This document shows, piece by piece, positions 37,065 through 39,931 of a DNA stretch of 64,000 bases. Position 1 is the first letter of the stretch. The number at the start of each line of letters is the position of its first letter. This DNA is from Arbacia lixula (lineage: Eukaryota > Echinodermata > Echinoidea > Arbacioida > Arbaciidae), in NCBI GenBank assembly GCA_963669155.1, contig OZ022591.1:20928504-20992503 (forward strand), given 5' to 3'. The translations under genes were made by a program, and so were the position numbers. The notes under the pieces were generated by a model, which made no database searches, was not told the DNA's origin, and saw nothing but the letters and a program-made list of their open reading frames with translations.

Positions 37065-37650
37065 TGTAAGCAGTGGAATTCACTGCATACTAGAAATATA
37101 GTAGCACTGGTAGCACAGAGGAGTATACAGAGAGAGAGTATGTATTTCGTGAGTCAAAGCACTTCCCAAGGCAAAAACAGTAAAACTGTTGTTCAGGGAT
37201 TTATGATATGTCCAGTGCGGAGAGCTGTGGTCAGTTGTAAGTGGAATCCTGCCCCTGTTCAGACTCCAATAATATGTCCTTCATCTTTTCCCCTCTCGAC
37301 ATTCCTTTGCTCCTTTTTATGTGGTTCTCTTTATCTTCCCCCTTTAAGTTGTTTGCATCTCCTTGTTGGAAGAGAGAAGGTTGGGGTAGTTATGTAGCAG
37401 CATGTACAAAGGAGAGTCAGTCGAGATTTGGAAGCGGAGAGAGGAAGAAGTAGAAGTAGCAGTAGAAGTAGAACAGTAGTTAAGCGAGTGCAGGGAAAGT
37501 GCTGGAAGAGAAACTTGTATCATAACTGGAAGATCATTATCAATAAACCGGATCTCTCGCCTGAGCCATAAACATACTTAATCGTTTGTTTCTCCTTTAA
37601 TAATCAGTAACAGTAATCGAACCCCTGTAAGTGACTAACGAGTGCTTACA
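37065..37650 (+). repeat. 5' LTR (586 bp)
   Basis: Direct repeat beginning TGTAAGCAGTGG and ending GAGTGCTTACA, so TG...CA with a short inverted terminus (TGTAAGCA/TGCTTACA). It contains a likely AATAAA-type signal within TCAATAAACCGGATC near the 3' side, as in many R/U5 regions. Its partner at 39346 has the same length. Confidence 0.95.
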
Positions 37651-37657
37651 TAAAATT

Positions 37658-37674
37658 TGGTGTCAGGAGTGGGA
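37658..37674 (+). other. Primer-binding site, tRNA-Leu type
   Basis: TGGTGTCAGGAGTGGGA starts 7 bases after the 5' LTR and is complementary to the 3' end of animal leucine tRNAs (…ACACCA). This is the usual minus-strand primer place in LTR elements. The match to tRNA-Leu is from memory of the tRNA 3' end. Confidence 0.75.
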
Positions 37675-37716
37675 TATCGAAATCGATTATTGAAGTTCGG
37701 CGAGAGACAACCAACC

Positions 37717-38007
37717 ATGGCAACCGACAAGATGCCACCCCGTCAGTGGAACATGACATTCATCAATTGGATGTATGGGCAGTTAGAAGACTTGGACAGA
37801 AGATTGACAGCCATTGCTGCTCGCAGGGAGCAGGAGAGGATTGCTGAGATAACACGTCAAGGACGTAGGTGTTACAACTGTGACAGGCAGGGCCACTTCG
37901 CCAGGAGCTGCGACCGTGGATGGCGACGCCGCCCATCAAACCGATCCCGTCAACCTCCCCGAGCCTCTCAGCATGACCAGGACCATTACTGGCAGGCGGA
38001 AAACTAG
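37717..38007 (+). CDS. Gag-like frame with CCHC zinc knuckle (LTR element)
   Basis: A frame of 96 codons plus stop, starting MATDKMPPRQWNMTF. It has a short helical segment (INWMYGQLEDLDRRLTAIAA), one retroviral-type knuckle CYNCDRQGHFARSC (C-x2-C-x4-H-x4-C), and a basic Arg/Pro-rich end. This matches the nucleocapsid part of a Gag protein. The large capsid region is not seen, so it is much shorter than a normal Gag. The next frame overlaps its end slightly, an arrangement usual between gag and pol frames in this family. Confidence 0.8.
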   Translation: MATDKMPPRQWNMTFINWMYGQLEDLDRRLTAIAARREQERIAEITRQGRRCYNCDRQGHFARSCDRGWRRRPSNRSRQPPRASQHDQDHYWQAEN

Positions 38008-38108
38008 GATGCGCCGGGGCTGAGGGTCACGCTCCGGAAAGGAAACCAGACCCAACCACGAAACGTTCTCTGTCCCCACGACCACCTTCCCCCATCGTCT
38101 CAGGCACT

Positions 38109-38912
38109 GTGAAGTGGTTCAACGTCAAGAATGGCTATGGTTTCATTATCAGGGACGATACTAAGGAAGATGTGTTCGTCCATAAGTCAGCTATTGCACG
38201 GAATAACCCGAGGAAGTATCAGCGCAGTGTCGGTGACGGAGAAAGGGTCGAGTTCTACGTCCAGATAGGCAAGAAGGGCTACAAGGCAGTTCAAGTTACT
38301 GGCCCTGGATTCACTCCAGTGCAGGGCAGTAGATACGCGGCTGACAAGCGGCGCCCACGACGTCGTCCACGTCAACCCCGCCAGCACCGAGGACACCACT
38401 GGCAGAGACACTGGAACGGGAACCCCCGACAGAGGTTTCACCAAAACGAGCCTAGCCCCTTCTCCTCCACCCCGGACACAGAGCCGTCTACTCCAGTCCG
38501 AGCGGCAGCGGAGGAGCCGCCCTCACCCCATGTCCAGCCAGGAGGAGAGAGACGAGGTCCAGGTGTCTATCCAGTCTTTCATGCTCCACCCCCACCCCGT
38601 CGCGATCACGCCCCGCCTGAAGTTGAAGAAGTTCGTCCTGATGCCGTTCCCCGCTCCATCAACATCGAAGTGGAAACCCCAGTTGGACAGGAAGAACAAA
38701 GCAACCCCTCGCTTGTCCCAGATTCCCCATCTCCCGTCCAAACCAGGTCCTCCACTAGGTCCAACAAAGGTGTCCCCCCAGACCGATATGCAGCATCTCT
38801 CCGTGTAGTTGAACCAGAATTTGGCTCGACCCAAATGTATGACTCATTTCCGTTGAAAACCATTAACCGTATGTTACCATTCACCATGACTGTAGGTCCC
38901 ACATTTTTGTAG
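38109..38912 (+). CDS. Y-box cold-shock-domain frame inside the LTR element
   Basis: The frame contains a textbook eukaryotic Y-box cold-shock domain: VKWFNVKNGYGFI (RNP1 core), DDTKEDVFVH (RNP2 core), NNPRKYQRSVGDGERVEF and VTGPGFTPVQGSRYAAD, at about the first 75 codons. In animals this fold binds single-stranded RNA and DNA (YBX/Y-box proteins, mRNA packaging). An Arg/His/Pro-rich basic stretch follows, like the start of the basic/aromatic islands of Y-box proteins, then a proline-rich linker. The end, QTRSSTRSNKGVPPDRYAAS, resembles C-terminal tails of LTR-element polyproteins. The frame is open about 130 bases further upstream. The simplest reading is a host Y-box cDNA segment fused between gag-like and pol-tail sequence. 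Whether it is translated or useful to the element is unknown. Confidence 0.85.
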   Translation: MKWFNVKNGYGFIIRDDTKEDVFVHKSAIARNNPRKYQRSVGDGERVEFYVQIGKKGYKAVQVTGPGFTPVQGSRYAADKRRPRRRPRQPRQHRGHHWQRHWNGNPRQRFHQNEPSPFSSTPDTEPSTPVRAAAEEPPSPHVQPGGERRGPGVYPVFHAPPPPRRDHAPPEVEEVRPDAVPRSINIEVETPVGQEEQSNPSLVPDSPSPVQTRSSTRSNKGVPPDRYAASLRVVEPEFGSTQMYDSFPLKTINRMLPFTMTVGPTFL

Positions 38913-39101
38913 GACATGTAATGTCATTTATTCATATGTAATTCTGTATGATTAATTACGAGGAGAGTTTTGCATCATGTTTCGTTCATGTTGAGACTAT
39001 AGTACATGTAGGCAATGAAAGGGACAGAATTTTGCGGTAAACACTATATGCATTTACAATATACGATGTACATGTATACCGGTAGTTAATAGGGCTTGTT
39101 T

Positions 39102-39185
39102 GCTTGCTTGATTACTTAAAGTGTTAAATTATGTACTTATAAAGCTTGCTTGATTACTTAAAGTGTTAAATTATGTACTTATAAA
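39102..39185 (+). repeat. 42-bp tandem duplication inside the LTR element
   Basis: The unit GCTTGCTTGATTACTTAAAG... occurs twice head to tail with a 42-base period, in the AT-rich stretch between the second frame and the 3' LTR. Confidence 0.85.
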
Positions 39186-39345
39186 GCGAGGCATTTCGAT
39201 CGTGTGCTATATTGCTAGGTTTAGTTAATGATTATGTTAATGTTTTAAAATATATCTTAGTTTCGGAATACCTCTATGGAAGAGACATTGTTAATGACAA
39301 ACAATCATGACAGTGGAAGTCATGATCAAAGTTGGCAGGGAGATA

Positions 39346-39931
39346 TGTAAGCAGTGGAATTCACTGCATACTAGAAATATAGTAGCACTGGTAGCACAGA
39401 GGAGTATACAGAGAGAGAGTATGTATTTCGTGAGTCAAAGCACTTCCCAAGGCAAAAACAGTAAAACTGTTGTTCAGGGATTTATGATATGTCCAGTGCG
39501 GAGAGCTGTGGTCAGTTGTAAGTGGAATCCTGCCCCTGTTCAGACTCCAATAATATGTCCTTCATCTTTTCCCCTCTCGACATTCCTTTGCTCCTTTTTA
39601 TGTGGTTCTCTTTATCTTCCCCCTTTAAGTTGTTTGCATCTCCTTGTTGGAAGAGAGAAGGTTGGGGTAGTTATGTAGCAGCATGTACAAAGGAGAGTCA
39701 GTCGAGATTTGGAAGCGGAGAGAGGAAGAAGTAGAAGTAGCAGTAGAAGTAGAACAGTAGTTAAGCGAGTGCAGGGAAAGTGCTGGAAGAGAAACTTGTA
39801 TCATAACTGGAAGATCATTATCAATAAACCGGATCTCTCGCCTGAGCCATAAACATACTTAATCGTTTGTTTCTCCTTTAATAATCAGTAACAGTAATCG
39901 AACCCCTGTAAGTGACTAACGAGTGCTTACA
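39346..39931 (+). repeat. 3' LTR (586 bp)
   Basis: The partner of the 5' LTR, with the same ends and length; no difference was noticed on reading. It is preceded by a short purine-rich run (GGCAGGGAGA) in the place of a polypurine tract and followed by GGAA, the same four bases that precede the 5' LTR. Confidence 0.95.

What the first reader, a model, noticed from the sequence alone, without database searches (positions are those of the whole stretch)
37065..39931. LTR retroelement that has captured a host Y-box cold-shock domain
Between two 586-bp LTRs that look identical, the only coding content is a zinc-knuckle gag fragment and a frame with a near-canonical Y-box cold-shock domain (KNGYGFI, DVFVH, NNPRKYQRSVGDGE, VTGPG...PVQGSRYAAD). 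Y-box proteins package mRNA in the cytoplasm and are host genes; a cold-shock domain is not a normal part of gag-pol. The domain is flanked by element-type sequence on both sides (knuckle before, polyprotein-like tail after), so it sits inside the element rather than beside it. It may be a transduced host cDNA that helps package or protect element RNA, which would be a retrovirus-oncogene-like capture in an invertebrate retroelement. That role is inference.
Basis: partly seen in the sequence, partly recalled or inferred. Interest (0 to 1): 0.88.

Follow-up and report, generated by a model that had tools for sequence, protein, structure and literature searches.

The report
Jumping element carrying host RNA-packaging domain
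A small retrovirus-like jumping element in an animal genome has swapped its enzyme genes for a piece of a host gene that coats messenger RNA, and all eight copies found have kept that piece intact, so the element probably uses it to handle its own RNA.

Summary
Window 37065-39931 is a complete insertion: two identical 586-bp LTRs, a 4-bp target duplication, a primer site and a purine tract. Eight such elements were found in the host genome, at eight sites; all eight have target duplications and keep both reading frames open. Three 8.3-kb relatives with open gag and pol frames show the origin: in the short element most of gag is gone, and the protease-RT-RNase H-integrase part of pol is replaced, in frame, by a Y-box cold-shock domain plus its basic cluster. 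The pol start, pol end and gag-pol frameshift signal remain. The only other match found is one host Y-box gene whose domain is split by three introns that the element lacks, so spliced mRNA was captured. Synonymous sites against that gene are saturated while 66 of 84 residues match; among the eight copies the domain has no amino-acid change, whereas the pol tail drifts. Most likely the element makes a small NC-CSD RNA chaperone for its own RNA and is moved in trans by the long relative. Anatomy and capture: about 0.95. Role: about 0.5, inferred.

The parts
37061..37064 (+). target site duplication, left copy (GGAA)
   Evidence: 8 of 8 short copies have a 4-bp duplication
37065..37650 (+). 5' LTR, TG...CA with 8-bp inverted ends TGTAAGCA/TGCTTACA; AATAAA at 37542
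37658..37674 (+). primer binding site, tRNA-Leu type (name recalled; match to a host tRNA gene not tested)
   Evidence: the 17 bases are the same in 8 of 8 short and 3 of 3 long copies
37717..38007 (+). gag-like ORF, 96 aa; residues 2-96 align to the last 98 aa of the long relatives' Gag
37867..37914 (+). CCHC zinc knuckle (nucleocapsid type)
   Evidence: E 7e-5; HIV-1 NC best in PDB at a weak E of 0.0066
37998..38004 (+). slippery heptamer GGAAAAC immediately before the gag stop TAG (GGGAAAC in the long relatives)
   Evidence: 8 of 8 short, 3 of 3 long
38014..38037 (+). hairpin 9 nt after the heptamer; relative to the long relatives one A-U to G-C double change and one G-C to G-U
37977..38912 (+). 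311-codon frame (-1 to gag): pol N-terminus, captured CSD, pol C-terminus
37977..38096 (+). pol N-terminal piece (residues 1-43 align to pol 1-46, 76% identical)
38097..38348 (+). captured Y-box cold-shock domain (residues 41-124)
38349..38408 (+). basic cluster resembling the segment that follows the CSD in the host Y-box protein
38424..38819 (+). pol C-terminal tail (residues 150-281 align to pol 1240-1371, 44-45% identical)
39102..39187 (+). tandem duplication of a 42-44 bp unit in the 3' untranslated part; two units only in the window copy (six others have one; L095 has no exact copy)
39337..39343 (+). polypurine tract AGGGAGA before the 3' LTR
39346..39931 (+). 3' LTR, identical to the 5' LTR
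39932..39935 (+). target site duplication, right copy (GGAA)

Best explanation
It is a young, non-autonomous Ty3/gypsy-type LTR retrotransposon that took up part of a spliced Y-box mRNA in place of its enzymes. Shown: LTRs, primer site, purine tract and frameshift region are kept; most of gag, and the protease, RT, RNase H and integrase, are gone; a Y-box CSD with its first basic cluster sits in frame between the start and the end of pol. Inferred: ribosomes read the 96-aa nucleocapsid-like protein and, by a -1 frameshift at GGAAAAC, a longer protein joining zinc knuckle, CSD and basic cluster. Two RNA-chaperone modules on one polypeptide coat and unfold the element's RNA, keep it as a nucleoprotein, and favour its entry into particles supplied by the 8.3-kb relative, whose RT and integrase act on it in trans through the shared ends and primer site.
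For: Eight of eight copies have 4-bp duplications, each of a different sequence, 7 of 8 have identical LTR pairs, and 8 of 8 keep both ORFs. Three of three long relatives have open gag and pol frames, LTR pairs with 0-2 mismatches and 4-bp duplications, and share with the short element the LTR ends (first 184 bases about 87%, last 97 about 96-97%), the first 56 bases after the LTR (98%), the nucleocapsid part (87%) and the last 68 bases before the 3' LTR (93%). The host gene has three introns inside the captured stretch; the element has none. Element CSD against host: pS 0.77, pN 0.13; random change at 0.2 substitutions per site leaves at most 64 of 84 residues in 500 trials, against 66 observed. 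Among copies the CSD has 0 nonsynonymous changes against 20 in the tail, 18 if three in one codon count once (p 4e-4 and 9e-4). The hairpin is kept with one compensatory pair. Of eight RNA-contact residues named for YB-1 (PMC9928419, passages), seven are kept. YB-1 cut after its first basic cluster coats mRNA as a linear filament in vitro, while the CSD alone does not (PMC6451097, abstract and passages); CSD plus first basic cluster is the part found here. MMTV Gag interacts with YB-1 in an RNA-dependent way and YB-1 knock-down lowers particle production (Bann 2014 as cited in PMC6797609, passages).
Against: No expression, translation or binding was tested. The heptamer GGAAAAC is not the GGGAAAC of the long relatives, and the hairpin is weaker (-14.2 against -19.2 kcal/mol), so the longer protein may be rare. 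The short hairpin alone is not exceptional against shuffles (z -1.25; +0.40 in a 63-nt and +1.54 in a 141-nt stretch), and the covariation is one pair in one comparison of two families. E121, one of the eight contact residues, is lysine in all copies. Within the CSD only one synonymous change is seen, so low variability there cannot be ascribed to protein selection from the eight copies alone. If the element branch since capture is as short as 0.1 substitutions per site, 66 of 84 residues is what neutrality gives (mean 66.8). Mobilisation by the long relative is inferred from shared ends; the LTRs as a whole differ by 22-24%. The single-sequence AlphaFold model was poor (mean pLDDT 48); the domain model made with bacterial homologues was moderate (67).
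Confidence: 0.6

Rival explanations
1. Passenger: the Y-box cDNA was transduced by chance template switching and rides along without function, as transduced gene pieces in defective elements often do.
For: Host-gene pieces in LTR elements are known; the pol tail in the same ORF drifts without sign of constraint (20 nonsynonymous, 6 synonymous, ratio 1.12). With only 0.1 substitutions per site since capture, neutrality would give the residue identity seen.
Against: The CSD has no amino-acid change among 8 copies and all 8 ORFs are open. Synonymous sites against the host are saturated with 66 of 84 residues kept; neutral simulation at 0.2-0.5 substitutions per site leaves on average 54-30 of 84, with stops in 73-94% of trials.
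Confidence: 0.12
2. Recent foreign capture: the CSD came from another species' Y-box gene (or the whole family arrived by horizontal transfer), so much of the saturated synonymous divergence and protein conservation belongs to a foreign host gene, not to selection inside the element.
For: No unpaired full-length LTR at 94% or more was listed: all 16 such LTRs are in 8 pairs. The CSD search found only 8 intact copies plus the host gene. One mismatch among the 8 LTR pairs.
Against: Element and host share residues that differ from vertebrate YB-1 at six positions. Short and long families differ by dS about 0.42 (NC) and 0.93 (pol tail), measured against L097, so the short lineage is old if it branched at capture. 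The low variation of the CSD among copies is independent of the source.
Confidence: 0.25
3. The CSD acts on the host rather than on element RNA: it competes with host Y-box protein, for example to change germline mRNA storage or silencing in the element's favour.
For: YB-1 unwinds and packages dormant mRNA (PMC8464072, abstract). The element CSD is more basic than the host's (net +7 against -1; YB-1 +1), which could let it outcompete host protein.
Against: It lies behind a nucleocapsid zinc knuckle and is reached only through the gag-pol frame, which fits an element-RNA role better. No direct test of either.
Confidence: 0.18
4. Artefact or chance: assembly duplication of the LTR, or a Y-box pseudogene that happened to land beside an element.
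For: None found.
Against: Eight separate loci with different 4-bp duplications; pol sequence on both sides of the CSD in one frame.
Confidence: 0.01

Closest known systems
Ty3/gypsy (Metaviridae) LTR retrotransposons; here the 8.3-kb family L096-L098
   Same: LTR ends, primer site, purine tract, zinc knuckle, pol start and end, gag-pol -1 overlap with heptamer and hairpin
   Different: Short element lacks PR, RT, RNase H, integrase and most of Gag; carries a Y-box CSD
Acute-transforming retroviruses (recalled) and ERVs with captured host mRNA (crocodile ERVs with KIT-ligand or nectin3, PMC4299795: abstract and section 15)
   Same: Host mRNA captured inside an LTR element; loss of viral coding parts in the usual case (nectin3 at the expense of env); purifying selection reported on the captured frames
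   Different: Here the captured piece is a general mRNA-packaging domain, it replaces the pol enzymes in the gag-pol frame, and no env was seen; the cited cases are a cytokine, a cell-adhesion protein, a kinase and cyclin homologues, and KIT-ligand and RSV Src came without loss of viral domains
Bdelloid rotifer LTR elements with captured ORF3 (exonuclease, esterase; PMC5408684, abstract)
   Same: Invertebrate LTR elements with acquired non-gag-pol genes
   Different: There an extra ORF in addition to gag and pol; here a replacement of pol enzymes in a non-autonomous element
TRIM / LARD / TR-GAG non-autonomous LTR elements (names recalled; TRIM paper PMC4717578 seen only in a search listing)
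   Same: Non-autonomous, LTR, primer site and purine tract kept
   Different: Codes for a host-derived domain that appears to be retained
YB-1 and host Y-box proteins; LIN28 (CSD plus CCHC knuckles)
   Same: CSD of Y-box type; in LIN28, CSD and CCHC knuckles in one protein (LIN28 architecture recalled)
   Different: Order is knuckle then CSD, knuckle from Gag; Y-box acidic/basic C-terminal repeats missing; LIN28 CSD matches far more weakly (51 against 128 bits)
Retron Se72-type effectors (NCBIfam NF038236)
   Same: A CSD protein tied to a reverse-transcribing element
   Different: Bacterial, below the family's cut-off (32.5 against 82 bits); no sign of common origin

Membership tests
LTR retrotransposon, Ty3/gypsy lineage (non-autonomous member) | Paired LTRs, TG...CA ends, short target duplication, primer site, purine tract | tested here: met
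   (8 of 8 short copies)
LTR retrotransposon, Ty3/gypsy lineage (non-autonomous member) | Homology to an element with PR-RT-RNase H-IN order | tested here: met
   (order from the Pfam coordinates of L097's pol; the other two long copies were not scanned)
LTR retrotransposon, Ty3/gypsy lineage (non-autonomous member) | Own RT and integrase | tested here: not met
   no pol enzyme match in the two ORFs; pol about 46-1240 missing; hence non-autonomous
Y-box protein cold-shock domain | Y-box insert (NNPRKYxRSVGDGE) and VTGP..P..GS.YAAD extension | tested here: met
   aligned to YB-1 and to the host Y-box protein. 18 of 18 bacterial rows have a 4-residue gap in the insert; those rows were cut to the match, so their lack of the extension was not tested
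Y-box protein cold-shock domain | RNA-contact residues K64 W65 Y72 F74 F85 H87 K118 E121 (list from PMC9928419 passages) | tested here: met
   7 of 8 kept, E121 is K
Y-box protein (whole protein) | C-terminal alternating basic and acidic repeats | tested here: not met
   only the first basic cluster resembles the host's; it is a captured domain, not a Y-box protein
Retroviral-type host mRNA capture | Intronless copy of a multi-exon host gene inside the LTRs, element sequence on both sides | tested here: met
-1 programmed frameshift | X XXY YYZ heptamer, spacer, downstream structure | tested here: inconclusive
   GGAAAAC (GGGAAAC in long), 9-nt spacer, hairpin with one compensatory pair; efficiency not measured
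Trans-mobilisation by the long family | Shared ends and signals with an element that has open enzyme frames and young copies | tested here: inconclusive
   signals shared, young long copies; no transposition shown
Self-RNA packaging by the CSD product | Product binds and packages element RNA | not testable with these tools
   needs protein-RNA assays

The most novel reading that the evidence does not exclude
A hyperparasitic retrotransposon has turned a host mRNP-packaging domain into its own dedicated nucleocapsid partner: having given up all enzymes, it competes for the particles of its autonomous relative by coating its RNA with a self-encoded zinc-knuckle plus Y-box chaperone, and this domain has been kept by selection since an old capture.
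Probability: 0.42. Interest if true: 0.88.

Novelty: new variant of a known kind. Interest (0 to 1): 0.77.

Why it matters
Some retroviruses borrow host YB-1 to assemble; this element carries the relevant domain in its own genome. It gives a natural case in which a non-autonomous element seems to keep one coding function, which makes an old question testable: do non-autonomous LTR elements only ride passively, or can they encode something that improves their share of the helper's particles? It also shows a host capture that replaces the pol enzymes, keeps the gag-pol frameshift region and is retained in every copy found.

Tried and rejected
Bacterial origin of the CSD: the 80 kept of 124 matching bacterial loci reach at most 58% in the best tblastn segment, over about 66 residues (up to 61% in the alignment of 18 of them), and those 18 have a gap in the Y-box insert. 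LIN28 origin: much weaker match. Assembly artefact and chance pseudogene: rejected. Structure: a single-sequence AlphaFold model of the whole ORF was poor; a 120-residue model with 18 bacterial rows was moderate and its best PDB matches are YBX2 and YB-1 CSDs bound to nucleic acid. Viral contigs: 4 and 17 stretches matched a pattern, none encoded a relative. The hairpin in 63-nt and 141-nt stretches was not more stable than shuffles; the case for it rests on the comparison with the long relatives.

Caveats on counts: the 20 tail nonsynonymous changes include three in one codon of one copy (W142), so 18 events is the cautious count (Fisher p 9e-4); all 8 copies were used and none dropped. The Fisher tests treat sites as independent. 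Nonsynonymous against synonymous inside the CSD alone (0 against 1) is not informative. Six further fetched LTR-like stretches (L099-L104 of the 16 regions) were only compared by blast.

A search of the host genome with the internal DNA and with a tRNA-Leu pattern did not complete, so CSD-less sister elements and the priming tRNA gene remain unchecked. The genome search scores only its best candidates (40 of 46, 22 of 22), so eight copies is a lower bound by the tool's own statement.
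Full report
What is there. The window lies at G000:C16:20928504-20992503 of a 607-Mb, 590-contig genome. A mir-8/mir-200 precursor at 4212-4288 scores above Rfam's gathering score, so the host is a bilaterian animal (distribution of this microRNA recalled); I think of an echinoderm, but that is recall too and no call names the host. 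At 37065-39931 stands an insertion with 586-bp LTRs, identical over all 586 bases, TG...CA ends with 8-bp inverted repeats, the 4-bp duplication GGAA on both sides, a primer site seven bases after the LTR and a purine tract before the 3' LTR.

Coding content. A 96-codon frame (ATG 37717, stop 38005-38007) carries one CCHC knuckle. A second frame, 37977-38912, 311 codons, lies in -1 relative to it and has no ATG before residue 287 in any of the 8 copies. It holds a cold-shock domain (Pfam E 6.3e-23) that matches Y-box proteins best: zebrafish YB-1 128 bits and 62 of 84 identical, against 51 bits for LIN28 and 48 for the best bacterial chain. Eighteen of 18 aligned bacterial CSDs have a gap in the Y-box insert.

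Copies. Searching the host genome with the LTR gave 66 matches (40 of 46 candidates scored); the 16 at 94% or more and of near full length form 8 pairs about 2.2 kb apart, and no unpaired LTR of that kind was listed. Searching with the CSD gave 11 matches: those same 8 elements and three exons of one host gene. All 8 elements have a 4-bp duplication, each of a different sequence; 7 of 8 LTR pairs are identical and the eighth (L089) has one mismatch and a 12-base gap. The copies differ from one another by 0.5-2.7% in the LTR and 0.2-1.2% inside. So each insertion is young, but they come from a varied, replicating lineage. All 8 keep both frames open with the gag stop directly after the heptamer.

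Origin. Three longer elements share the ends (L096-L098). Each has a 331-aa Gag from its first Met and a 1375-codon pol frame, LTR pairs with 0, 2 and 0 mismatches, and a 4-bp duplication; the pol of L097, the one scanned, has protease, RT, RNase H and integrase in the Ty3/gypsy order. The short gag-like protein aligns to the last 98 residues of the long Gag (58% identical); the start of the short second frame aligns to pol 1-46 (76%) and its end to pol 1240-1371 (44-45%). The CSD therefore stands where the pol enzymes were, in frame.

Source of the domain. The host Y-box gene on C16 (minus strand) encodes the same stretch in four exons at 14225872-14225814, 14224552-14224519, 14223977-14223888 and from 14221825 down, each internal border with AG/GT. 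The element has none of the three introns, so spliced mRNA was the template. Similarity runs through the CSD and the first basic cluster and then fades. Element and host share 66 of 84 residues. Of the 18 differences, 10 are changes on the element side, 2 on the host side and 6 cannot be placed, taking zebrafish YB-1 as outgroup.

Selection. Between element and host CSD, 43.2 of 55.8 synonymous sites differ (pS 0.77, saturated) but only 24.8 of 196.2 nonsynonymous ones (pN 0.13); the first 49 codons have pN 0.04. Random substitution of the host CSD at 0.2 per site leaves at most 64 identical residues in 500 trials, with a stop in 73% of them; 66 and no stop were observed. At 0.1 per site the observed number fits (mean 66.8), so the argument needs the element branch to be longer than that. 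Divergence from the long family (dS 0.42 in NC, 0.93 in the pol tail, against L097) suggests it is, unless the domain came recently from another species. Independently, among the 8 copies the CSD has one variable site in 252 (synonymous), the tail 26 changes in 561 and the LTR 33 variable sites in 586 (Fisher p 5e-4 and 6e-5). The tail's ratio of nonsynonymous to synonymous change is 1.12, that of the gag-like frame 0.25 on 4 changes.

Frameshift. The long elements have GGGAAAC-TAG and a hairpin of -19.2 kcal/mol (z -3.3 against shuffles, folded for L097 and L098; L096 has the same letters); the short ones have GGAAAAC-TAG in 8 of 8 and a hairpin of -14.2 (z -1.25). Between them one stem pair went from A-U to G-C on both sides and one from G-C to G-U. 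The signal is inherited and the stem kept, with a changed heptamer; how well it works is unknown.

Mechanism. YB-1 truncated after its first basic cluster forms linear filaments on mRNA in vitro through CSD and basic cluster, which the CSD alone does not (PMC6451097: abstract and passages), and YB-1 unwinds RNA stems with its CSD, secured by its C-terminal domain (PMC8464072: abstract). CSD plus first basic cluster is what the element has kept. Seven of the eight RNA-contact residues named in PMC9928419 (passages) are present; E121 is lysine. The CSD is more basic than the host's (net +7 against -1; YB-1 +1). MMTV Gag and YB-1 interact in an RNA-dependent way, and YB-1 knock-down cuts particle production (PMC6797609, passages, citing Bann 2014, not held); YB-1 depletion lowers HIV-1 virion production through viral RNA metabolism (PMC6040738, abstract). 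A nucleocapsid knuckle fused to a Y-box CSD is thus a plausible self-made packaging and chaperone factor. Mobilisation by the long family is inferred from shared ends, primer site and purine tract.

Novelty. Two searches of the paper library, 'cold shock domain' with 'retrotransposon' (52 papers, 20 listed) and 'cold-shock' with 'LTR retrotransposon' (11 papers, 10 listed), showed no title or abstract start that describes a CSD in an LTR element; the 32 unlisted papers of the first search were not seen, and subscription journals are mostly not held. One listed paper was checked by passages and concerns cold-shock retrogenes in dinoflagellates, not elements (PMC12014239). Host-gene capture by LTR elements is known. 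Hence: new variant of a known kind.

Noticed in passing
window 4212-4288 (-): mir-8/mir-141/mir-200 microRNA precursor, 52.5 bits, above Rfam's gathering score of 47; marks the host as a bilaterian animal (recalled distribution).
   Followed up: partly
window 56699-57946 (-): Open frame of 415 codons with a reverse transcriptase domain (RVT_1, E 1.5e-26), probably a non-LTR retrotransposon piece.
   Followed up: no
window 60872-62662 (-): Open frame of 596 codons coding for Hsp70 (E 4e-225), ending in EEVD.
   Followed up: no
window 37998-38004; L096-L098: Long family has GGGAAAC while all eight CSD copies have GGAAAAC: a fixed change in the frameshift site, perhaps a changed ratio of short to long product.
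   Followed up: partly
G000 C16:14221646-14225872 (-) (L116, L117): The CSD search (E up to 1e-3) found only one Y-box gene in the host genome, with the CSD split over four exons.
   Followed up: yes
all eight short copies: No decayed CSD copies and no unpaired full-length LTR at 94% or more were listed, although the family looks old; fits fast turnover or recent arrival by horizontal transfer.
   Followed up: partly
window 39102-39187: The 42-44 bp unit is doubled only in the window's copy.
   Followed up: partly
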